From: an uncultured Caryophanales bacterium
GTDB lineage: Bacteria; Bacillota_I; Bacilli_A; RFN20; CAG-288
Reading direction: 5' to 3'
Assembly (NCBI GenBank): GCA_949287425.1
Contig: CASEGJ010000003.1
Span: forward strand, 134,993 to 198,992
Length of the DNA: 64,000 bases
Below, piece by piece: positions 21,442-33,383 of the stretch. Numbering within the stretch: position 1 is the stretch's first letter; each line of letters opens with the position of its first letter. Position numbers and translations under genes: made by a program. The notes under the pieces were generated by a model. It saw only the letters and a program-made list of their open reading frames with translations. It searched no databases and had not been told where the DNA came from.

Positions 21442-21529
21442 AATGCGAACATATTAAAAATATGGTTAAATCTTGAATAATTTTTAAATTAAAAAAGAAT
21501 TAATAAATATAAATGTAAGCCCTTGCATT

Positions 21530-21557
21530 TAACTGGGAGGGTGGTATATTTAATGCT
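21530..21557 (+). promoter_or_regulatory. Promoter for the collagen-like lipoprotein
   Basis: TTGCAT, 16-base spacer, TATATT, ending about 20 bases before the ATG at 21571. An upstream in-frame ATG at 21523 falls in or before the -35 element, which helps rule it out as the start. Confidence 0.55.
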
Positions 21558-21570
21558 AGGAGGCTATTTT

Positions 21571-24390
21571 ATGAAGAAACTAAAAGTTCTTTCAACAAGT
21601 TTAACAAGTGTTCTATGCTTACTAGCATTAGCGTCTTGTCAACCAGCTTCTGGACCAGCTGGAGAAGTAGGTCCACAAGGTCCAACAGGTGAAACTGGAC
21701 CACAAGGTGAAAAAGGGGAATCAGCTTATGAGCTGTATATTAAAAATCACCCTGAATACACTGGAACTGAAGAAGAGTGGTTAGAAGATTTAGCTAATGG
21801 CAATCTAGTTGTCGATGATGTAAAAGAAGAACCAGAAGGGCAATTCCCAGTTACTTTAAGTGAAGATGGTGGATATTTTGTCTATGGTTTTGAAGGCTTT
21901 GAAAAAACTGTTCAAATTAGTGAAAGAGCAATTTTTGTCGATGGAAGCTTATTAGATAGTGAAATTGAAGGAATGCCAAATGTTTACAATGACTTTAATG
22001 AAGCTATTTATGCAGCAAGTGATGGAATTGAAGAAGATCCAACTACAATTTATTTAGCACCGTGGGTTTATTGGACACACGATCCTAATTCTAAAGAGAC
22101 GAAAGATCCTTTTGGAATTACTGTCGATATTGATAATCTCCATCTAGTTGGTTTAACTAACGATCCTGAAAATGTAGTTATCGCCGGTAACTATGGTCAT
22201 AATGAAGGTTATGATGGCGGTAACTGGACTATGTTTAATATTACTGGTGATGGTTTAACATTAGAAAACATCAGATTTGGTGGTTATTGTAATATCGATT
22301 TAGAATATCCTTTAAATCCAGATTTAAATGTTCCAAAAAGAACAGATAATATTACTCAATGTCAAATTGGTACTTATAATGGCGATAAATTATATGCTGA
22401 AAACTGCGATTTTATCTCTAGATTAAATATGATGCCATTTAATAATAGTCAAAGAGCTTTCTATGTAAATTGCCATTTTGAATCGACAGACGATTCTTTA
22501 AATGGTTCTTCTAAGGCTGTTTATTTAGGTTGTGATTTTGATTTCTACGCTTCTAAACCTTGGGGTGGATCTAGTGGGGTTACTTTATTAGATTGCGATA
22601 TGAATATCAAACATATGAATACTGTTCCTAATCAACCTATCAATCAATATTTATCAAAAGGTCAAGGTCCTTATACTTTAGTTGATTGCCGTTTCCATCA
22701 TGATTACGATGTTCCTGTTTATGTTGGATTTAACGATGTTTTAAGAGATAACTTTAGAAGTTATTATTCAAACGTCACTTTAAATGGTGAACAAATAACT
22801 ATGGATAATGGTGGCTTAGATCCTCAAGCTGGTGTTGATATTACTGGTACAGGTACTTTAAAAGCTTATAAACTTTATAAAGAAAATGGAGAAGTTATAT
22901 ATAACGTTTATAACTTACTTAGAGGAACTGATGAATGGGATCCATTAAAGCAAAAAGATGAGGTTACAGCTTTAAATGGTCAAGATAGAGCGACTAAGAT
23001 TTCAGCTTATGTTAATACTAGCGGTAAACCTACTTCTGCTTCTATTGAAAAAGGTCAAGAAGGTGTAACTTTAGCTTTTGATATCACTGGTCCTCAAAAT
23101 AGCGATTATAGTAATGTTAAAGCTACTTGGAGTGTTTATGATGATAAAAATTTAACTGCTGAAGAAAAGAAAGCTGTTAAATTAACTCCTTCTGAAGATG
23201 GTAAAACATGCTTAGTTGAATCAGTTAGTGAACTTCACAAGATTGTCGATTTAGTTGTTGAAGTTAAAACTAACACTGGTTTAGTCGGCGCTGTTAGCTT
23301 AGAAGTTAAACCAGAAATTCAACCTGCTCCTGAATTTAGCAAGCAACCTAGTATTGTTTTAAATAACGATGGAACTGCTAAATTAGATTATGAACTTAAT
23401 TTAGATGGATATGAAGATGCTTCATCTATTAAATGGTATGTTGTTGATGATGCAAGTGGAACAAATAAGATTTGTGTTCAAGATGACCATGGTATTACTA
23501 TTGGAAAGACACTTAAATTAACTAAAGCTTATGTTGGCAAATATTTAATTTCTGAAATTACACCTAAACACAATCTTTCAGTAAGTGGAGATGTTAAACA
23601 AGTTGTTTCTACTAGTGTAGTTGCTGATACTGGTATTGTTACTTCTAATGAATTAGATGTCGATATCGATTTATTCCCAACTCAAGCTCAAACCGAAATC
23701 ATACCTGGATTCTTCACATTAGATGGTTATAAACCATACGATACAACTTTACCTACAAGTGAAGATCCTTCTAATGGTTATTGGAATTCAAATAAGGCCG
23801 TTAACAGCGATGATTTATGGGCTTATGGAACTGGTAATAAAAATGGTTTCTTAGATTATACTGGTTTATATCAAAAAGATTATGGCGCTAGAATGTTATA
23901 TACTCCTTTAAATGGAACTTATAACGATATGGATGTTACAGTTACATTAGCTCCAGGTAAAACTGCCGGACAAGGTTTTGGTTCAGATCGTAATTATATG
24001 GATATCATGCTTAAATACGATACAACTACTTTAACTGGATATGGTGTTAGAATTCACCGTGTTTCTGGAAATAGCTGCGCTGTTACATTAATGAAATACG
24101 AAAATGGCGTTAGTACTATCTTAACTGGATTAAAAGACCATGTAACTTCTGCATATTTAACTGAATGTACAGTTAGAGTTTGGACTGAAACAGTCGATAG
24201 TAAAACTACATTACACGCCACTTTAAATACTACTGCACCAGAGCCATCTAACAATCAATATGAACATTCTGTAGATGTATCTTGCGATATTACTACTAAT
24301 ACATTTGGTGGATTTGGTATTCAACATGCTTCTTCTGCTGGTGATAATGCGACTTATATTCTCAGTATAAATTCTAAATGGGGAAATTAA
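21571..24390 (+). CDS. Collagen-like lipoprotein with right-handed beta-helix (pectinesterase-like) domain
   Basis: Surface lipoprotein of 939 residues. I chose the ATG at 21571 because it follows taggagg and starts a proper signal peptide; an upstream in-frame ATG at 21523 lacks both. The lipobox LASC gives Cys23. Residues 28-51 are eight collagen-type Gly-X-Y triplets (GPA GEV GPQ GPT GET GPQ GEK GES), followed by AYELYIKNHPEYTGTEEEW, a segment that often trails such repeats in gut firmicute proteins. About residues 100-430 look like a pectinesterase/pectin-lyase-type beta-helix (IYLAPWVYW..., LTLENIRFGGY, YAENCDF, YVNCHFES, YLGCDF). The C-terminal 450 residues contain Ig-like and jelly-roll-like stretches. 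Carbohydrate-directed function is inference; no catalytic residues were verified. Confidence 0.85.
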   Translation: MKKLKVLSTSLTSVLCLLALASCQPASGPAGEVGPQGPTGETGPQGEKGESAYELYIKNHPEYTGTEEEWLEDLANGNLVVDDVKEEPEGQFPVTLSEDGGYFVYGFEGFEKTVQISERAIFVDGSLLDSEIEGMPNVYNDFNEAIYAASDGIEEDPTTIYLAPWVYWTHDPNSKETKDPFGITVDIDNLHLVGLTNDPENVVIAGNYGHNEGYDGGNWTMFNITGDGLTLENIRFGGYCNIDLEYPLNPDLNVPKRTDNITQCQIGTYNGDKLYAENCDFISRLNMMPFNNSQRAFYVNCHFESTDDSLNGSSKAVYLGCDFDFYASKPWGGSSGVTLLDCDMNIKHMNTVPNQPINQYLSKGQGPYTLVDCRFHHDYDVPVYVGFNDVLRDNFRSYYSNVTLNGEQITMDNGGLDPQAGVDITGTGTLKAYKLYKENGEVIYNVYNLLRGTDEWDPLKQKDEVTALNGQDRATKISAYVNTSGKPTSASIEKGQEGVTLAFDITGPQNSDYSNVKATWSVYDDKNLTAEEKKAVKLTPSEDGKTCLVESVSELHKIVDLVVEVKTNTGLVGAVSLEVKPEIQPAPEFSKQPSIVLNNDGTAKLDYELNLDGYEDASSIKWYVVDDASGTNKICVQDDHGITIGKTLKLTKAYVGKYLISEITPKHNLSVSGDVKQVVSTSVVADTGIVTSNELDVDIDLFPTQAQTEIIPGFFTLDGYKPYDTTLPTSEDPSNGYWNSNKAVNSDDLWAYGTGNKNGFLDYTGLYQKDYGARMLYTPLNGTYNDMDVTVTLAPGKTAGQGFGSDRNYMDIMLKYDTTTLTGYGVRIHRVSGNSCAVTLMKYENGVSTILTGLKDHVTSAYLTECTVRVWTETVDSKTTLHATLNTTAPEPSNNQYEHSVDVSCDITTNTFGGFGIQHASSAGDNATYILSINSKWGN

Positions 24391-25959: not shown

Positions 25960-26616
25960 TTAGATAATTTCAATAGAGAAAGCCTTTAATACACGTAGAT
26001 TTCCTTTAGTAATTAATGTTAAGAAAATCTTACCATTATATGTATAATTTGCGTTAGCATTCTTATTAGAAGTATTTGTATCAGTTAAATTAGAAATAAT
26101 GGTTTCAGATAAATTGTAATAATCATTATAGATGTTATATAAATTTGCTTCTTCCAAATTGATTAGATTATAACTATTAGAAAAAATATCCGAATATCCT
26201 CTTTTACCTAAATATGAATTATTAAAGTTAACTATTCCTGCAAAATCAGCAGTAAAATTAAGTCTTCCTTCAACTATATAATCATTTGGGGCATAATCTG
26301 TGATAGTATTGTCTCCAATATGAACATTATAAAGTCCATGGTTAGGATTAAGAGTTAAAAATTTAATTAGTCTATTATTTTCAAAGACGTATCTATTAGT
26401 CATATCATTTGAAATAAATATCTCGTATTTATTTACATTTATTTTATAGTAATTAGTATCTTTTAAGATATTTTCATAGGAATTATGGTCACTAAATTTA
26501 TATTCTAATCCTGGAGTTACAGTTTCAAGGTATTTTAATTCTTGATAGGAACTATTACATGAAGTTAATGGAAATAAAGTTAATAAAATCAGGCTAAATT
26601 TTAATATTTTTTTCAT
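25960..26616 (-). CDS. Family A lipoprotein, copy 1
   Basis: Lipoprotein of 218 residues, lipobox PLTSC (Cys20). The conserved core is EYKFSDHNSYENILKDTNY, then Y.IF.S.D, Y.FENNRLIKFLTLNP and an HIG motif. The same pattern runs through copy 2 (29382-29999) and, more distantly, both family C proteins, so all four are paralogs. It has no recognisable domain. Its ATG overlaps the upstream family B stop as ATGA, with ggagg upstream: last gene of the D-C1-B1-A1 operon. No terminator is obvious before eno. Confidence 0.8.
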   Translation of the reverse strand: MKKILKFSLILLTLFPLTSCNSSYQELKYLETVTPGLEYKFSDHNSYENILKDTNYYKINVNKYEIFISNDMTNRYVFENNRLIKFLTLNPNHGLYNVHIGDNTITDYAPNDYIVEGRLNFTADFAGIVNFNNSYLGKRGYSDIFSNSYNLINLEEANLYNIYNDYYNLSETIISNLTDTNTSNKNANANYTYNGKIFLTLITKGNLRVLKAFSIEII

Positions 26617-27212
26617 AGTTGGTCCTCCATAGAGAATTCGAAGTTAAACATCGTTTGAAACGGACTATCTTTTTGATAAGAATAGGCTAAAGTTAGTTTC
26701 TCATATTTAAAAACTCTATATGAATAAGTTATATTTTCATAAGTAAAATCGGTGTAATTAGTTAGGCTATTTGATTCTGTATAACCTCTATCAATTAATA
26801 AATTTGGTAGAGAAGAATATTTAGAAGCAATCAAAGGATTTTCATTAGATAAAATAGTATTAGCTCCGCAAAAGAAACCATAGATATTAGGGGTAGATGA
26901 GAAAGTTATATTTTCATTTTTAATTTGATTTGTCGTTTCTATTTTATAGACAATATCGTTAGAATTTACATATATTTTATGATTATAAGTATAATTTTCA
27001 CTATATATTGCATATCCATCAATGATATTAACAAAATCATATTGTAATTCTAAATATTTAGTATTAACTCTTTTTCCAACAATCATACCTAGATTATATA
27101 TGCCTTTAGAAAGATTGATAGCTTCATTAGTTAAGCTAGTTTCAATTTTGTTAGGTTGACAAGAAGTTAGACTTAATAAAGGTAAGCATAGTAAAATCAA
27201 TATTTTTTTCAT
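26613..27212 (-). CDS. Family B lipoprotein, copy 1
   Basis: Lipoprotein of 199 residues, lipobox SLTSC (Cys18). I place the start at 27212 because aaaggaggt lies seven bases upstream and the signal peptide begins there; a longer frame to 27248 lacks these. It is clearly paralogous to copy 2 (29996-30595), sharing IETSLTNEAINLSKGI, LGMIVGKRVNT and FTYENITYSYRVFKYEKLTL. Unlike families A and C it has no KDTNY motif. It ends in TGA inside an ATGA overlap with family A. Function unknown. Confidence 0.8.
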   Translation of the reverse strand: MKKILILLCLPLLSLTSCQPNKIETSLTNEAINLSKGIYNLGMIVGKRVNTKYLELQYDFVNIIDGYAIYSENYTYNHKIYVNSNDIVYKIETTNQIKNENITFSSTPNIYGFFCGANTILSNENPLIASKYSSLPNLLIDRGYTESNSLTNYTDFTYENITYSYRVFKYEKLTLAYSYQKDSPFQTMFNFEFSMEDQL

Positions 27213-27222
27213 ATTACCTCCT

Positions 27223-27771
27223 TTATTTATATTGGATAAAAAATCCATAAAGTATATCTACATCAAGAATTCCAAAGATTAATTTATTTTTATAAAAGTA
27301 ATTACACCAATAAGCGCCATTTGTGATTAGTGAATTTGATATAGGTAAAAATAAATCATCAATTGCTGGATCAGTAATTGAAAGATTTTCACTATAATTC
27401 TTCTTCTTTTTCGTATCGTTCATGTTGTTGTAAAATTGATCTTGATTAGCTCCGCCGATTTGATAATCTAAAATAGAAGATTTAGGATCGTAAGTTAAAA
27501 ATCTATATAACTGATTTTCACTAGTGAAATAATAGTAATTTAAGTCGTCTTTAGATCTAAATAACTTATAAGAAACATAATCTTCTAATTCATAATTAGT
27601 ATCTTTGGATATTTTATCAAAAGCTTCTTCATCTCCTATTTTATATTCTTGATTAGTTACATTATCTTGAATATAGTTAAACTCATCTTTATAGTCGATA
27701 ATATTGCAGGAAGTTAATAAAAATAAAGATGATAAAAACAAACATATAATTAATTTGATTTTATATTTCAT
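27223..27771 (-). CDS. Family C lipoprotein, copy 1
   Basis: Lipoprotein of 182 residues, lipobox LLTSC (Cys22). It carries the same core as family A: EYKIGDEEAFDKISKDTNYE, LFRSKDDL.YYYF, QLYRFLTYDPKS and QIG. A 106-base stretch covering the signal peptide end and N-terminus (27631-27736) is identical to copy 2 (31019-31124), while the C-terminal third differs. The ATG overlaps the TGA of the upstream secreted-protein gene. Function unknown. Confidence 0.8.
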   Translation of the reverse strand: MKYKIKLIICLFLSSLFLLTSCNIIDYKDEFNYIQDNVTNQEYKIGDEEAFDKISKDTNYELEDYVSYKLFRSKDDLNYYYFTSENQLYRFLTYDPKSSILDYQIGGANQDQFYNNMNDTKKKKNYSENLSITDPAIDDLFLPISNSLITNGAYWCNYFYKNKLIFGILDVDILYGFFIQYK

Positions 27772-29219
27772 AAATTGTCCTTATTCGTTTCTAAGTAGTT
27801 TATTAATTCATTATATATGTCTCCAGCTATTGTTTTCATATAATTATTCATTTCAGATTTGCTTAATAATGTGAAACTGCCATAATTATCCATGTTATTA
27901 TATTCATCCGCTGGAATAAAATTAGAAATTAAATTATTTTTTAATATAACAGGATTTCTATTAAAATAAGAGTCTTGATGGCATCTAAACGGAATAATAT
28001 TTAGATAGTAATTATTACCATATTGAAGTTTTGATGAATCAAAGAAATTATCTATAGCTATGGTGGCGTTGTTACGTATACAAATTATATCGCCAGGCTT
28101 TCTATCCTTAATATCGTTTTCAATTCTTAAAAAAGTATCTTCAAATTCGTCGATTTTTTTTGCGGTAGCAACAGAGTTAAATCCATCAATTAAATCAGCT
28201 AGTGTACTTATTCCAGATGTTAGTGACATTAGATAATTGACAGGTGATGGTAATGTTATAGTACTACTAACAATTTCTTCCACTATGGCAATGACAAATT
28301 TTACTACATCACCTATTATTTTTGAAAGTGATGTTGAGAATTGGTTAGCTTGAATATAATCAACAGCCGCAGCATACATTATATATAGTTCATCTAAAAT
28401 TTCTTCATCCCAAATATAAAATATTTGTGCAGCACTATTGTATGATGTGGTATATGAACGAGGAGGATATGTTTCATATACATCTGTTCCGTCAATTGTT
28501 TGTTTATATATTATGTCTCCTTCTTGATTTACTGTTTTACCTCCAGGCAAATAGTCTGCTGTCCACATTGCACCAACATAATTTTGTTTAATAGTATCAT
28601 TTATAACCAATGTATCTTTTAATTCATCTGTTTCAATATCGTTAGAACCAAAATTTAATTGATATCCGCCATAATCATTATTTGTTGTTCCTTTTAATTC
28701 AATATAATATGCTCCTGGTTTAAGCTCTAATAAATAGTTAACACTTGTTCCATTTGCAGGAATTGAACATATAGCTTCTTCAACTTCATTATAAACAGTA
28801 CAAGTTAAATTCGCTCCCCTTGGATCTAATCTTAAATTTAAATAAAACCATTGAAGAGCAACACAGTAATAATAATCGCGATCATAAATTATTTTATATG
28901 GATCCCTTTGTGTTTGAGGAGCACTTACACTACCATTTATTTGAGCACTAGTAGTATTAATTTCCATAGCATCATTAAATGAACTATTTTTACCATTACT
29001 ATTAATAACAGAATAGGAAATATTATCAAAATCAATTCCTTTAACGGAAGTGTTTCTAACTTGAATATCATAATCTGGATTTACAATTTCACTTTGATTT
29101 AAATTATATCTATTTAAATCAATATATAAAGTTTGCTCTCTAGGAGCATGACTTTCTTCTTTAGGCGAGGTTAGTCCTGTTAGTGACATTCCAGCTGCTA
29201 ATAACAAGTTGAGTAACAT
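27768..29219 (-). CDS. Secreted protein of unknown function with PPC-like domain
   Basis: Protein of 483 residues with a short signal peptide (MLLNLLLAAGMSLTGLTS) and no lipobox cysteine. Residues about 80-190 (FNDAMEI...DRDYYYCVALQWFYLNLRLD, then LKPGAYYIELKGT...YGGYQLNF) resemble a bacterial pre-peptidase C-terminal (PPC) beta-sandwich, which usually accompanies secreted enzymes, but no catalytic domain is recognisable. A hydrophobic or amphipathic stretch follows at about 290-350. First gene of the D-C1-B1-A1 operon, with its own strong promoter and an aaagga site; the TGA stop overlaps the next ATG. It has no counterpart in the other cassette copy. Confidence 0.75.
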   Translation of the reverse strand: MLLNLLLAAGMSLTGLTSPKEESHAPREQTLYIDLNRYNLNQSEIVNPDYDIQVRNTSVKGIDFDNISYSVINSNGKNSSFNDAMEINTTSAQINGSVSAPQTQRDPYKIIYDRDYYYCVALQWFYLNLRLDPRGANLTCTVYNEVEEAICSIPANGTSVNYLLELKPGAYYIELKGTTNNDYGGYQLNFGSNDIETDELKDTLVINDTIKQNYVGAMWTADYLPGGKTVNQEGDIIYKQTIDGTDVYETYPPRSYTTSYNSAAQIFYIWDEEILDELYIMYAAAVDYIQANQFSTSLSKIIGDVVKFVIAIVEEIVSSTITLPSPVNYLMSLTSGISTLADLIDGFNSVATAKKIDEFEDTFLRIENDIKDRKPGDIICIRNNATIAIDNFFDSSKLQYGNNYYLNIIPFRCHQDSYFNRNPVILKNNLISNFIPADEYNNMDNYGSFTLLSKSEMNNYMKTIAGDIYNELINYLETNKDNL

Positions 29220-29281
29220 ATAATTTTGTCCTTTCCTAAACTATAAGATAAATATAGTTTAAACTTCAACTATCTAACTTT

Positions 29282-29309
29282 ATTATATCGCAGCCATAAA
29301 AATAGTCAA
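29282..29309 (-). promoter_or_regulatory. Promoter for the D-C1-B1-A1 operon
   Basis: Minus-strand TTGACT (plus-strand AGTCAA, 29304-29309), 16-base spacer, TATAAT (plus-strand ATTATA, 29282-29287). The -35 lies within an arm of the 35-bp palindrome at 29299-29333. Confidence 0.8.
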
Positions 29310-29333
29310 CATCAATTTGACGCCGACTATTTT
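29299..29333 (-). terminator. 35-bp palindrome, copy 1: terminator-like stem overlapping a promoter
   Basis: The arms AAAATAGTC (29299-29307) and GACTATTTT (29325-29333) pair perfectly, an inner TCAA/TTGA extends the dyad, and T5 follows on the minus strand. It lies 50 bases past the family A copy 2 stop. It is identical at 34 of 35 positions to the copy at 31231-31265. Confidence 0.7.
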
Positions 29334-29381
29334 GTGTAGATTAAATAACTAAAATTTTCTCAAAGGGAATAGAAAACAAAT

Positions 29382-29999
29382 TTATCTTAAAATTTCGATT
29401 GAAAAACTATCAAATGTATCACATCCAGGATTGATTGATGGGGTAATAAATATTTTATTATCATATGTATAATATCCATCTTTATAATAGTTCATATCGT
29501 TATCCATATAATCTAGATTGTAATAGCTAGCATAAACATATGATAAGTTAGCTTCTTTTATATTAACTAAATTTAAATTGGTTAAAAGAATCCACTCATA
29601 CCCTCTATTTTTTAAAAAATTATAGTAAAAATCACCATATTTAATACTATCTTCAATTTTAAAGCTATTTGGAGCTAGGTTGTTTCTAATAGTATCTCCA
29701 ATATGAATATTAAACATTCCATGCTTAGGATTTAAGCTAATAAACTTAACTAGCTTATTGTTAGTAAAGACATATTTAACCATATTATCAGTGGAAGTAA
29801 ATATATCGTAGTTACTTATAGTTTCTTTAGTATAGTTAGTATCTTTAGATATATTTTCATAGGCAGAATCATCGCTAAATTTATAATCTAGACCTTGAGT
29901 AGTATTTTCTATATATTTAAGTTCTGAATTGGCATTTTTACATGAAACTAGTGGGCATAAGGTTAATAAAACTAAAATTGTTTTAATTGTTTTTTTCAT
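29382..29999 (-). CDS. Family A lipoprotein, copy 2
   Basis: Lipoprotein of 205 residues, lipobox PLVSC (Cys20). It shares with copy 1 the core DYKFSDDSAYENISKDTNY, YVFTNNKLVKFISLNPKHG and IHIGD, then diverges. Last gene of the C2-B2-A2 operon; its ATG overlaps the TGA of family B copy 2, as in the first cassette. A terminator-like palindrome follows. Function unknown. Confidence 0.8.
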   Translation of the reverse strand: MKKTIKTILVLLTLCPLVSCKNANSELKYIENTTQGLDYKFSDDSAYENISKDTNYTKETISNYDIFTSTDNMVKYVFTNNKLVKFISLNPKHGMFNIHIGDTIRNNLAPNSFKIEDSIKYGDFYYNFLKNRGYEWILLTNLNLVNIKEANLSYVYASYYNLDYMDNDMNYYKDGYYTYDNKIFITPSINPGCDTFDSFSIEILR

Positions 30000-30595
30000 A
30001 AATTACCCTCCAAAGAGAATTCAAAATTAAACATCTTTTGATACGGACTATCTTTTTTATAAGAATAAGCTAAAGTAAGTCTATCGTATTTAAATACTCT
30101 ATAAGAATAAATGATGTTTTCATAGGTAAAATCAAAGTAATTTTCTGGATTAGTGTTTTCTATATAACCTCTAGCAATTAATAAATCAGCTAAAGAATAA
30201 TAATCAGAATGTACTAGTGGATTATCTTGAGAAAGAATAGTATTAGCTCCACAATAAAAGCCATAGATATTAGAAGTTGAATCAAAAGTAACATGATATC
30301 TATCTTTAGTTTGCTCGGTAGTTTCTATTTTATAGACAATATCGTTGTTATCTACATATATTTTGTGGTTGTAAGAGTAGTTTTCTTTATAGATTTTGTT
30401 AGTATCTGTTTCACTCTCTAAACTATATTCTAACTTTAGATATTCAGTATTAACTCTTCTTCCTACTATCATTCCTAGATTTAATATTCCTTTAGAAAGA
30501 TTGATAGTTTCATTAGTTAAGCTAGTTTCAATTTTCTTTTGACAGGAAGTTAGACTTAATAAAGGTAAACATAGTAAAACTAACAACTTTTTCAT
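29996..30595 (-). CDS. Family B lipoprotein, copy 2
   Basis: Lipoprotein of 199 residues, lipobox SLTSC (Cys18), aaaggag upstream. It aligns with copy 1 along its whole length without large gaps (IETSLTNETINLSKGI, LGMIVGRRVNTEY, YNHKIYVDNNDIVYKIETTE, PNCGAN-type YGFYCGANTILS), more uniformly than families A or C. Ends in TGA inside an ATGA overlap. Function unknown. Confidence 0.8.
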   Translation of the reverse strand: MKKLLVLLCLPLLSLTSCQKKIETSLTNETINLSKGILNLGMIVGRRVNTEYLKLEYSLESETDTNKIYKENYSYNHKIYVDNNDIVYKIETTEQTKDRYHVTFDSTSNIYGFYCGANTILSQDNPLVHSDYYSLADLLIARGYIENTNPENYFDFTYENIIYSYRVFKYDRLTLAYSYKKDSPYQKMFNFEFSLEGNL

Positions 30596-30607
30596 GCTTT
30601 TTCTCCT

Positions 30608-31159
30608 TTATTTATACTGTATGAAGAATCCGTAAAATACATTATTAGTATCGAGAATTCCAAAAATTAAATTACCTTTATAAAAATAGTTATTCCACCA
30701 ATTAACATCAATTATTTTTGAGTTTGTCATAGGTAAAAACAAATCATCTTCAGTTGGATGACCAGCAGCAATTTCAGAATCATAGTTGGCTTTTTTGTTA
30801 TCTAGATTTATGTTTGCATAAAATTTTTCTTTATTATTAGTACCGATTTGATAATCTAAAATTGAAGATTTAGGATCGTAAGTTAAAAATCTATATAACT
30901 TATTTTCGTTATTAAAATAATAGTAATTTAAATCGTCTTTAGATCTAAATAACTTATAAGAAACATAGTCTTCTAATTCATAATTAGAATCGTTTGATAT
31001 CTTATTAAAAGCCTCTTTATCTCCTATTTTATATTCTTGATTAGTTACATTATCTTGAATATAGTTAAACTCATCTTTATAGTCGATAATATTGCAGGAA
31101 GTTAATAAAAATAAAGATGATAAACATAAACTTATAATTAATTTAAATTTAGGTTTCAT
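30608..31159 (-). CDS. Family C lipoprotein, copy 2
   Basis: Lipoprotein of 183 residues, lipobox LLTSC. First gene of the C2-B2-A2 operon, 12 bases before family B copy 2. The N-terminal half is almost identical to copy 1, including 106 identical bases at 31019-31124; the C-terminal half is less similar but keeps KLIFGILD and YGFFIQYK. The core motif EYKIGDKEAFNKISNDSNYE carries Ser in place of the usual Thr. Function unknown. Confidence 0.8.
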   Translation of the reverse strand: MKPKFKLIISLCLSSLFLLTSCNIIDYKDEFNYIQDNVTNQEYKIGDKEAFNKISNDSNYELEDYVSYKLFRSKDDLNYYYFNNENKLYRFLTYDPKSSILDYQIGTNNKEKFYANINLDNKKANYDSEIAAGHPTEDDLFLPMTNSKIIDVNWWNNYFYKGNLIFGILDTNNVFYGFFIQYK

Positions 31160-31212
31160 AATTAAGTCCTTTTATATTAATAATAGTTTAAAATTTAATT
31201 ACTGCTATCTTT

Positions 31213-31241
31213 ATTATATCTGTGATTAAAAAAATAGTCAA
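31213..31241 (-). promoter_or_regulatory. Promoter for the C2-B2-A2 operon
   Basis: Minus-strand TTGACT (plus-strand AGTCAA, 31236-31241), 17-base spacer, TATAAT (plus-strand ATTATA, 31213-31218). As in the other cassette, the -35 is embedded in the 35-bp palindrome. Confidence 0.82.
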
Positions 31242-31265
31242 CATCAATTTGACGCTGACTATTTT
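31231..31265 (-). terminator. 35-bp palindrome, copy 2: terminator of the ABC exporter operon overlapping a promoter
   Basis: The arms AAAATAGTCA (31231-31240) and TGACTATTTT (31256-31265) pair perfectly, and T7 follows on the minus strand. It begins inside the stop codon region of the ABC permease gene, an unusually tight fit. Confidence 0.78.
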
Positions 31266-32401
31266 GAGTTTTGATTTTTATCGTTTTGTTCTTCAAAATT
31301 ATTTATATTTTTACCAGGTGTATTTTTTCTATATTCTACTTTTGTATTTGTTTGAATAGATGAAGGTATATCCATTTTATTTTCAATAGATTTTATTTGG
31401 GTGTTTTCTTTCAAATTTAAATTCTTTTTCTTTTTTGGAAGACCGAGTAAAATCCTTGAAGAAAACATGATGTTTAAGCTCATAAAGATAATAGAATAAA
31501 CACATAAAGTTAACACCATAAAAGCTGGTGAAACTACATTGCCAAAGAAGTCTAAATTAAAAGAGAAATTAGATTGTAAATCGCTGATAATTGTATTAGC
31601 TTGTTCAAATTGAGCATAGCTAGTTTTAACTAGTTCAGATAATTGATAAACTGGATAATTCATAAAGTAATTTCTAAATAGACCAGCTGAATAAGTTCCA
31701 GGGAAAAACATTGTGACAAACGAAATGGATTTTGGAAGCATGCTAGTAGGAAGATAGGCTCCAATTAAAAATCCAATAGCGGCTGAAGCGATAGCGGTTA
31801 TAGATGAAAGTATACTTTCACTTGAAATTAATGAACAAATAAAAAACATAATTAGCGCTGAACATATTGAAGAAAGAATAATAATACCAATTAAGGCAAA
31901 AAAGTCACTTCCTCTCATTAAAAACGCACCGTAAGTTAATAAATAACAAACACAACCGATAAAGACGATTATATTTACTAGACAAGTGACAATTAAATTA
32001 AATAAGAAATATGAAAGCATAATTGAGCGTGAAGTTATTGGTGAAGATATAAAATCTTTACTTACTCCAGTTTCTTTATCTCGAACTTGAATATAACAAG
32101 TATTTAATGAAACGGTAATACAAGAAGTAGCTAAAACACCAGAAATCATCCAAGCATCGACAATACCATATACTTTTTTAATATCGTTATTTTCTTTTAA
32201 AGCACTAAGAAGTTCTTTATCAATTGCCACTTCTATTTGGGAAAGTTCCATCGGTCTTAAAAACAAAGCGTAAACAGCTAAAATAATTACAGGAACTAAC
32301 AAGGTAAACAAAACGTTAACTTTGTTTTTAAGAAAGATTTTTAAATGTCTTTTGGTTAGAGCCCATAAGACAAAAATTTCATTTTTAATATTTGTTTTCA
32401 T
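31259..32401 (-). CDS. ABC-2 type transporter permease
   Basis: Membrane subunit of an ABC exporter, 380 residues with six hydrophobic segments after a short N-terminus: first near residues 25-45 (VNVLFTLLVPVIILAVYALFL), the rest from about 85 to 310. A charged cytosolic tail of some 60 residues (Lys/Asn-rich) follows. I place the start at 32401, after ggaggaataag; a frame to 32437 would run into the ATPase gene. It begins one base after the ATPase stop. The substrate (drug, lipid or polysaccharide) cannot be told from sequence. The palindromic terminator abuts its stop. Confidence 0.9.
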   Translation of the reverse strand: MKTNIKNEIFVLWALTKRHLKIFLKNKVNVLFTLLVPVIILAVYALFLRPMELSQIEVAIDKELLSALKENNDIKKVYGIVDAWMISGVLATSCITVSLNTCYIQVRDKETGVSKDFISSPITSRSIMLSYFLFNLIVTCLVNIIVFIGCVCYLLTYGAFLMRGSDFFALIGIIILSSICSALIMFFICSLISSESILSSITAIASAAIGFLIGAYLPTSMLPKSISFVTMFFPGTYSAGLFRNYFMNYPVYQLSELVKTSYAQFEQANTIISDLQSNFSFNLDFFGNVVSPAFMVLTLCVYSIIFMSLNIMFSSRILLGLPKKKKNLNLKENTQIKSIENKMDIPSSIQTNTKVEYRKNTPGKNINNFEEQNDKNQNSK

Positions 32402-32402
32402 C

Positions 32403-33383
32403 TTATTCCTCCAATATTTTATTAATTCCAGTGACATTTAAAAAGACATCGTCCATGGAGCCTTTTTCAACTTCAAAATCTTTCAGGATTTCACTGTGAT
32501 TTTGAATAAAAGCAATAGCGTCACTTGAATTTTTAACAGTTACTTTATAATACTTGTTATCATTGTTATAACTGAACTTTCTTTTTTCTTTAATAAGGAT
32601 ATCTTCGATTTTGCTGTCTTTTTTGGAATAAATAAAGACATAATCGCCAGAGAATCTATTTTTTAAATCTGTTGGAGTTCCAGAAGCTATTATTTCGCCT
32701 TTGTTCATTATAACTACATAAGTAGCTTTTTCAGCTTCTTCCATATAATGAGTGGTTAAAAAGACAGTCATTCCTGTTTTTTGTCTTAGTTCATTAATTA
32801 AATTCCAAACCGCTATTCTTGTTTGAGGATCTAAACCAGTTGTCGGTTCATCTAAGATAAGTAAACTAGGATCGTGAATCATAGCTCTAGCGATGTCTAT
32901 TCTTCTTTTTTGACCGCCAGATAATTTACCGACAGGTCTATCTAAGAAGGATTCTAAATCTAACATTTTTGATAATTTTTCAATTTTATCTTTTAATTCT
33001 TGGCCTTTGATTCCATAAAAGCCAGCTCTAACTATTAGATTTTCTCTCCCAGTTAAAACGTTATCTAAAATAGAATTTTGAAAAACAATTCCAATTTTTG
33101 ATTTAATTTGAACATTGTCTTTATCTATATCTAATCCATCGAGGCTAATTTTCCCACTATCTTTATCAAGAATAGAACAAATTATATTGATAGTAGTTGA
33201 TTTACCAGCGCCATTTAATCCTAAAAAAGCAAAAAGAGAACCTCTTTTAACAGAAAATGAGATATTGTTAACTGCAGTTAACTTTCCATAAGTTTTAACT
33301 AAATTGTCAACAGTTAAGATATATTCTGATTGGGAATCAAATTCTTTTTTCTTTTTGGTAAAAATATTCATTTTCATAGCCAT
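32403..33383 (-). CDS. ABC transporter ATP-binding protein (DrrA-like)
   Basis: ATPase partner of the following permease. Walker A FLGLNGAGKSTTI, the signature LSGGQKRRIDIARAM, Walker B LLILDEPTTGLDP and the switch His (LTTHYMEEAE) are all intact. The C-terminal 90 residues are the accessory domain usual in DrrA-type exporters. The start is unsettled: the first ATG (33383) lies one base from a TATAAT-like string and has no ribosome-binding site, so an in-frame ATG at 33377 on a leaderless mRNA is plausible. Confidence 0.92.
   Translation of the reverse strand: MAMKMNIFTKKKKEFDSQSEYILTVDNLVKTYGKLTAVNNISFSVKRGSLFAFLGLNGAGKSTTINIICSILDKDSGKISLDGLDIDKDNVQIKSKIGIVFQNSILDNVLTGRENLIVRAGFYGIKGQELKDKIEKLSKMLDLESFLDRPVGKLSGGQKRRIDIARAMIHDPSLLILDEPTTGLDPQTRIAVWNLINELRQKTGMTVFLTTHYMEEAEKATYVVIMNKGEIIASGTPTDLKNRFSGDYVFIYSKKDSKIEDILIKEKRKFSYNNDNKYYKVTVKNSSDAIAFIQNHSEILKDFEVEKGSMDDVFLNVTGINKILEE

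What the first reader, a model, noticed from the sequence alone, without database searches (positions are those of the whole stretch)
29299..31265. A duplicated 35-bp palindrome that appears to serve as terminator and promoter at once
Two copies (29299-29333 and 31231-31265), identical at 34 of 35 positions, each form a stem with a T run on the minus strand just after an upstream operon (one starts within the stop region of the ABC permease gene). In both, the inner edge of the distal arm is TTGACT, the -35 of a near-consensus promoter (16 or 17 bases to TATAAT) for the next lipoprotein operon. A paused or terminating polymerase would therefore sit on the next promoter, and a dimeric repressor could use the dyad. 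The near-perfect conservation in fast-diverging flanks suggests selection or a recent duplication edge.
Basis: partly seen in the sequence, partly recalled or inferred. Interest (0 to 1): 0.72.

Follow-up and report, generated by a model that had tools for sequence, protein, structure and literature searches.

The report
Terminator fused to lipoprotein promoter
In an uncultured gut bacterium, the "stop" hairpin at the end of one operon and the "start" signal of the next share the same DNA letters, and this combined switch has been copied at least three times along with a family of lipoprotein genes found only in this species.

Summary
The 35-bp dyads (29299-29333, 31231-31265) are identical at 34 of 35 positions. 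Each folds as minus-strand RNA into a perfect 16-bp stem with a U-run, and its 3' arm holds TTGACT, 16 or 17 nt from TATAAT.

I found a third copy on another contig (C4:167475). It heads a paralogous lipoprotein cassette and keeps an 11-bp core dyad. There the upstream gene has its own terminator, and two congeners show the locus without the cassette. In relatives the permease ahead of copy 2 is followed directly by a tldD-like gene. So the dyad accompanies the downstream promoter, not the upstream gene.

The overlap is rare: 3 of 32 co-directional terminators in 464 kb of this genome, all this family, and 0 of 67 in related Bacilli at the same promoter cut-off. All asymmetric pairs in the core are G·U on the sense strand, which favours an RNA hairpin over a protein operator.

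Best reading: an insulated promoter, meaning an intrinsic terminator fused to a sigma-70-type promoter and duplicated with the cassette. Polymerase handover and repressor binding are untested; no other dyad site or adjacent regulator was seen. Copy 2's stem contains the permease stop codon, so termination there may depend on translation.

The parts
29299..29333 (-). Dyad copy 1: terminator-like hairpin (16-bp stem, -17.7 kcal/mol on the minus strand)
29298..29302 (-). T5 run (A-run on +): U-tract of the copy 1 hairpin and also part of the -35/-10 spacer
   Evidence: read directly
29282..29309 (-). Promoter copy 1: TTGACT, 16 nt, TATAAT; the -35 lies in the 3' arm of the hairpin
31231..31265 (-). 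Dyad copy 2: terminator-like hairpin (16-bp stem, -18.5 kcal/mol on the minus strand); contains the stop codon of the ABC permease at 31259-31261
31228..31234 (-). T7 run (A-run on +): U-tract of the copy 2 hairpin and part of the -35/-10 spacer
   Evidence: read directly
31213..31241 (-). Promoter copy 2: TTGACT, 17 nt, TATAAT; the -35 lies in the 3' arm of the hairpin
30608..31159 (-). Lipoprotein A (183 aa), first gene of the cassette behind promoter copy 2
29996..30595 (-). Lipoprotein B (199 aa)
29382..29999 (-). Lipoprotein C (205 aa), upstream neighbour of dyad copy 1
27768..29219 (-). 483-aa ORF, first gene behind promoter copy 1; no Pfam match, no homologue in 58 relatives
27223..27771 (-). 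Lipoprotein A' (182 aa), second cassette
26613..27212 (-). Lipoprotein B' (199 aa from the inner ATG), second cassette
25960..26616 (-). Lipoprotein C' (218 aa), second cassette
31259..32437 (-). ABC-2 permease whose stop codon lies in the stem of dyad copy 2; in five relatives (same family) it is followed directly by another gene (tldD-like where tested by Pfam)

Best explanation
The dyad is a real intrinsic terminator that has been fused to, and travels with, the sigma-70-type promoter of a duplicating lipoprotein cassette: an insulated promoter. RNA polymerase arriving from the operon upstream makes the hairpin and stops in the U-run, so the lipoprotein operon is driven only by its own promoter. 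The -35 hexamer is inside the terminator's 3' arm, so the letters of one are pinned by the other: the arm must stay TTGACT for initiation, and the left arm must stay complementary to it. Shown: the sequence, fold, rarity and association with the cassette. Inferred: that termination and initiation happen there. Not tested: whether the terminated polymerase helps or hinders the next start.
For: Sense-strand RNA makes a perfect 16-bp stem with a U-run; the antisense strand does not. Its stability ranks 4th and 6th of 89 terminator-like hairpins sampled. In copies 1 and 2 no other terminator-like hairpin stands between the upstream stop codon and the promoter. Among co-directional terminators only this family carries a promoter of at least 10/12 with its -35 in the 3' arm: 3 of 32 in own genome, 0 of 67 in 80 loci of related Bacilli. 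The element accompanies the cassette: third copy ahead of the C4 cassette behind an unrelated YhcH-family gene that keeps its own terminator; two congeners have YhcH next to the convergent phosphatase gene without the cassette; five same-family relatives have the permease followed directly by the next gene. The fourth cassette, whose upstream neighbour is divergent and sends no transcripts in, lacks the dyad. Core asymmetries are all G·U in sense RNA: GG/UU, AG/UU, AA/UU. The dyad is 34/35 identical while third codon positions of the two cassettes are 0.57-0.74 identical; P about 4e-4 at 0.74.
Against: Copy 3 has a separate terminator about 18 nt upstream and has lost the outer stem (-11 to -12 kcal/mol), yet keeps the 11-bp core, which termination alone does not require. 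The copy 2 stem contains the permease stop codon; in E. coli ribosomes near a terminator block it (PMC4824070). Here, though, 10 of 62 hairpins start within 6 nt of a stop codon, as in runaway-transcription bacteria (PMC7858274). The G·U argument rests on few independent changes. The three copies are homologous, so they are not three independent observations. At promoter cut-off 9/12 one relative locus (L087) also shows an overlap. No expression data exist.
Confidence: 0.6

Rival explanations
1. The core dyad GTCAACGTCAA-A-TTGATGTTGAC is an operator: a dimeric or tetrameric regulator binds over the -35 and represses the lipoprotein operons; the terminator is incidental.
For: The 11-1-11 core is kept in copy 3, where another terminator makes a second one unnecessary, and is most symmetric there (10 of 11 pairs). 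It covers the -35 at the same place in all three copies. It contains a repeated GTCAA/TTGAY pattern at 6-bp spacing (read directly).
Against: No further site in own genome at up to 3 mismatches; in the 464-kb sample no other site below 5 mismatches. The order-wide search gave only one hit elsewhere, in a coding region that looks like rpsK, and the backward control also gave one. No regulator among the neighbours scanned with Pfam (not every gene of the genome was scanned). All deviations from DNA symmetry are those that keep sense-strand RNA pairing. The fourth cassette lacks it.
Confidence: 0.2
2. The dyad is only the edge of recent duplications: the cassette was copied together with a chance terminator-promoter junction, and the likeness reflects recent copying or gene conversion, not selection for a dual signal.
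For: Homology among the copies starts at the left arm and runs rightwards; copy 1 is like copy 2 on the left but like copy 3 on the right, as after recombination. At the 90% identity of the best 300-nt stretch of cassettes 1 and 2, 34/35 is not surprising (P about 0.12).
Against: Between copies 1 and 2 the spacer and leader around the dyad have diverged strongly while the dyad, T-run and -10 have not. The left-arm changes keep pairing in all three copies.
Confidence: 0.15
3. Termination-coupled reinitiation: polymerase released in the U-run, about 22-25 bp upstream of the expected next start, keeps or regains sigma and restarts on the lipoprotein promoter, so the lipoproteins follow the activity of the upstream operon.
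For: Geometry. E. coli RNAP mostly stays on DNA after intrinsic termination and can restart at nearby promoters (PMC6978380, PMC6978322).
Against: No data here. The upstream genes are unrelated in function in the three copies, so there is no evident reason to couple them. The same geometry could equally cause occlusion of the promoter. PMC6978322 reports that restarts were usually in the reverse direction.
Confidence: 0.1
4. The dyad is a site-specific recombination site for switching lipoprotein genes, as in Mycoplasma vpma-type loci.
For: A near-identical short site upstream of members of a multi-copy lipoprotein family.
Against: None of the four Phage_integrase-family genes of the genome is on contigs C3 or C4. 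Copies 1 and 2 are in direct orientation, so recombination would delete DNA, not invert it. The terminator and promoter anatomy is left unexplained.
Confidence: 0.03

Closest known systems
Intrinsic (Rho-independent) terminators of Bacilli
   Same: Stable sense-strand hairpin with A-run/U-run edges, close behind a stop codon, like the other terminator-like hairpins of this genome.
   Different: The 3' arm is also the -35 of the next promoter, and the element goes with the downstream rather than the upstream gene.
Sigma-70/SigA-type promoters
   Same: TTGACT and TATAAT with 16 or 17 nt between, 11 of 12 consensus letters.
   Different: The -35 is half of a long dyad; the terminator's U-run is the start of the spacer.
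Operators overlapping the -35 (dimeric repressors)
   Same: Dyad covering the -35.
   Different: Only RNA-type (G·U) deviations, no second kind of site, no known regulator; binding not testable here.
Post-termination polymerase recycling and reinitiation (PMC6978380, PMC6978322)
   Same: The anatomy would place a terminated polymerase next to a promoter.
   Different: Those are in vitro or genome-wide observations in E. coli, not a dedicated fused element.
Variable lipoprotein families of Mollicutes (vlp, vpma; vpma in PMC2268961)
   Same: Multi-copy lipoprotein cassettes with a repeated upstream element; homopolymer between -35 and -10 (vlp comparison from my own knowledge).
   Different: The T-run is short (5-7), no recombinase is near, and no variants were observed.

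Membership tests
Intrinsic terminator | Stable hairpin in the sense RNA | tested here: met
   -17.7 and -18.5 kcal/mol, z -4.9 and -7.0
Intrinsic terminator | U-run directly after the stem | tested here: met
   T5 (copy 1) and T7 (copy 2); at least 6 T in 8
Intrinsic terminator | Lies just behind a co-directional gene | tested here: met
   49 nt behind lipoprotein C; overlapping the permease stop codon
Intrinsic terminator | Transcript 3' ends map in the U-run | not testable with these tools
   No transcript data
Sigma-70-type promoter | -35 and -10 hexamers with 16-18 nt spacing ahead of a gene | tested here: met
   11 of 12 letters; the two best of 75 hits in 24-36 kb
Sigma-70-type promoter | Transcript 5' ends about 7 nt after the -10 | not testable with these tools
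   No transcript data
Repressor operator | DNA-level dyad kept across sites | tested here: inconclusive
   8, 9 and 10 of 11 core pairs symmetric; all breaks are G·U-compatible on the sense strand
Repressor operator | Further sites or a linked regulator gene | tested here: not met
   No other site in own genome at up to 3 mismatches; none below 5 mismatches in the 464-kb sample; no regulator among scanned neighbours
Site-specific recombination site of a lipoprotein switch | Linked recombinase gene | tested here: not met
   Four Phage_integrase genes, none on contigs C3 or C4
Site-specific recombination site of a lipoprotein switch | Alternative arrangements in the population | not testable with these tools
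   One assembly only

The most novel reading that the evidence does not exclude
A dedicated handover element: the terminator delivers post-termination RNA polymerase onto the promoter built into its own 3' arm, so the lipoprotein operon is fired by termination of whatever operon it is copied behind.
Probability: 0.08. Interest if true: 0.8.

Novelty: new variant of a known kind. Interest (0 to 1): 0.4.

Why it matters
Terminators and promoters are usually treated as separate parts. Here the same bases appear to serve both, and the pair is copied as one piece with a lipoprotein cassette, so the cassette can settle behind other operons without being read through. It also gives a natural sequence for testing whether a polymerase that has just terminated helps or blocks a promoter about 25 bp ahead, a question raised by single-molecule work that its authors had not yet seen answered in vivo (PMC6978380).

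Tried and rejected
Exact 29-mer search of genome contigs: nothing. 35-mer in four congeners: nothing. Core 23-mer in 279 genomes of the order: only own copies plus one coding-region hit in G077 that looks like rpsK, rejected as chance because the backward control also gave one. Homologues of lipoprotein A by single sequence (147 genomes) and by profile (279 genomes): no convincing one outside this genome; the best, G036 at 2e-4, covers about 95 residues of a 713-aa frame and was not followed. Rfam: only a sub-threshold snoRNA chance match. Recombination site: no recombinase on these contigs. Dyad as the permease's ancestral terminator: rejected, since five same-family relatives have no terminator there. 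A general genome habit of overlapping terminators with promoters: rejected. Literature searches for a named class of -35-overlapping terminators found none in the held library, which is not proof of absence.

Full report
What is there. Copies at 29299-29333 and 31231-31265 are identical at 34 of 35 positions. Read on the minus strand, the direction of the lipoprotein genes, both make an uninterrupted 16-bp RNA stem (-17.7 and -18.5 kcal/mol; z -4.9 and -7.0), followed by T5 and T7. The other strand folds much less well (-9.4 and -10.7). TTGACT in the 3' arm is the -35 of TTGACT-16/17-TATAAT promoters, the two best of 75 promoter-like hits in 24-36 kb.

A third copy and a cassette family. The three lipoprotein genes behind copy 2 (A 183 aa, B 199 aa, C 205 aa) have paralogues in the second cassette of the window, at C4:167.6 kb (A and B) and at C3:27.5-29.2 kb (A, B and C). 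The C4 cassette has the same promoter, TTGACTATTTTTATGGCCGCGATATAAT, preceded by GTCAACGTCAA-A-TTGATGTTGAC: the inner dyad is kept and the outer arm is lost. The most divergent cassette (C3:28.6 kb), whose upstream neighbour is divergent, has a TTGACC/TATAAT-like promoter but no dyad at the -35. No convincing homologue of lipoprotein A was found in 147 relatives by sequence or in 279 genomes of the order by profile. By LysS the closest named genome is Candidatus Scatoplasma merdavium, 72% identical.

The dyad belongs to the downstream unit. The three copies lie behind unrelated genes: an ABC-2 permease, lipoprotein C, and a YhcH/YjgK/YiaL-family gene. In five relatives of the same family the permease is followed at once by another gene, PmbA/TldD by Pfam where tested, with no terminator. 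In congeners G004 and G002 the YhcH-family gene faces the tyrosine-phosphatase gene directly; in this genome the dyad, promoter, lipoproteins A and B and a ZIP transporter gene lie between them. There the YhcH-family gene has its own terminator (AGAGGGCTATTTA-GATAA-TTAAATAGCTCTTT, -13.3 kcal/mol), and the dyad comes after it.

How unusual. In 464 kb of this genome I found 89 intergenic terminator-like hairpins; 62 follow a gene and 32 of these have a co-directional gene within 400 nt. Only the three family members have a promoter of at least 10/12 with its -35 in the 3' arm. In 786 kb of related Bacilli it was 0 of 67, with one at 9/12. The overlap is therefore not a habit of compact AT-rich genomes, but the three cases share one origin.

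RNA or DNA symmetry. The right core arm is TTGATGTTGAC in all three copies. The left arms are GTCGGCGTCAA, GTCAGCGTCAA and GTCAACGTCAA. Every departure from a perfect DNA palindrome is a G facing T, a G·U pair in sense RNA and an A·C mismatch on the other strand. This favours selection on the RNA, though few independent changes stand behind it. Conservation of 34/35 compares with third-position identities of 0.74, 0.69 and 0.57 for genes A, B and C; at 0.74 the chance of at least 34/35 is about 4e-4. Gene conversion could also explain it: copy 1 resembles copy 2 on the left and copy 3 on the right.

Mechanism. Shown: fold, U-run, promoter letters, rarity, association with the cassette. Inferred: termination of upstream transcripts and initiation of the lipoprotein operon. 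The U-run lies about 22-30 bp upstream of the expected start, so a terminated polymerase would cover the promoter. Published single-molecule work says polymerase usually stays on DNA after intrinsic termination and can restart nearby (PMC6978380, PMC6978322), so handover is possible; so is occlusion. Neither was tested.

Weak points. In copy 2 the permease stop codon lies in the stem, and ribosomes suppress terminators near stop codons in E. coli (PMC4824070). But 10 of 62 hairpins in this genome begin within 6 nt of a stop codon, the pattern reported for B. subtilis, where polymerase outruns ribosomes (PMC7858274). Copy 3 keeps the core without needing a second terminator; the operator reading explains that better, or the core is simply not yet lost. 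No further dyad site and no adjacent regulator or recombinase were found.

Verdict. A real, unusual terminator-promoter fusion that accompanies a species-restricted lipoprotein cassette; parts known, combination a new variant. Most of the functional claim waits for transcript data.

Noticed in passing
L023:1975-2040 (G000:C4:167475-167540): Third copy of the promoter with a shortened dyad, ahead of lipoproteins A and B and a ZIP transporter gene.
   Followed up: yes
29228-29281 (and L023:2025-2060): The leaders of copies 1 and 3 begin with a possible small hairpin, ATAGTT...AACTAT, right at the expected 5' end of the mRNA; it might protect the transcript. Seen by eye, not folded.
   Followed up: no
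29298-29302 and 31228-31234: The T-run is 5 in one copy and 7 in the other, and the -35/-10 spacer is 16 and 17; slippage would alter terminator and promoter together. No variants were seen.
   Followed up: no
L019, L020, L022 (G000:C5:82208, C5:92972, C10:57608): Three near-consensus promoters share TTGACATTGCTAA, another possible repeated promoter family in this genome.
   Followed up: no
27768-29219: 483-aa ORF without Pfam match or homologue in 58 relatives, placed between promoter copy 1 and the second lipoprotein cassette.
   Followed up: partly
31259-32437: The permease reads tens of residues past the end of its closest relatives and stops inside the dyad, as if the insertion supplied the stop codon.
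   Followed up: partly
21523-24390: 955-aa ORF with a lipoprotein-like signal and a short collagen-like stretch (GPAGEVGPQGPTGETGPQGEKG); no Pfam match.
   Followed up: no
29382-29999 and 30608-31159: Lipoproteins A and C are distant paralogues of each other (about 35% identity over 97 residues), so the cassette itself contains an older duplication.
   Followed up: no
L024:3760-3800 (G000:C3, about 29.3 kb): Upstream of the fourth cassette there is a perfect palindrome GTTAGCTAGCTAAC about 20 bp before the -35, between divergent genes; possibly an operator.
   Followed up: no
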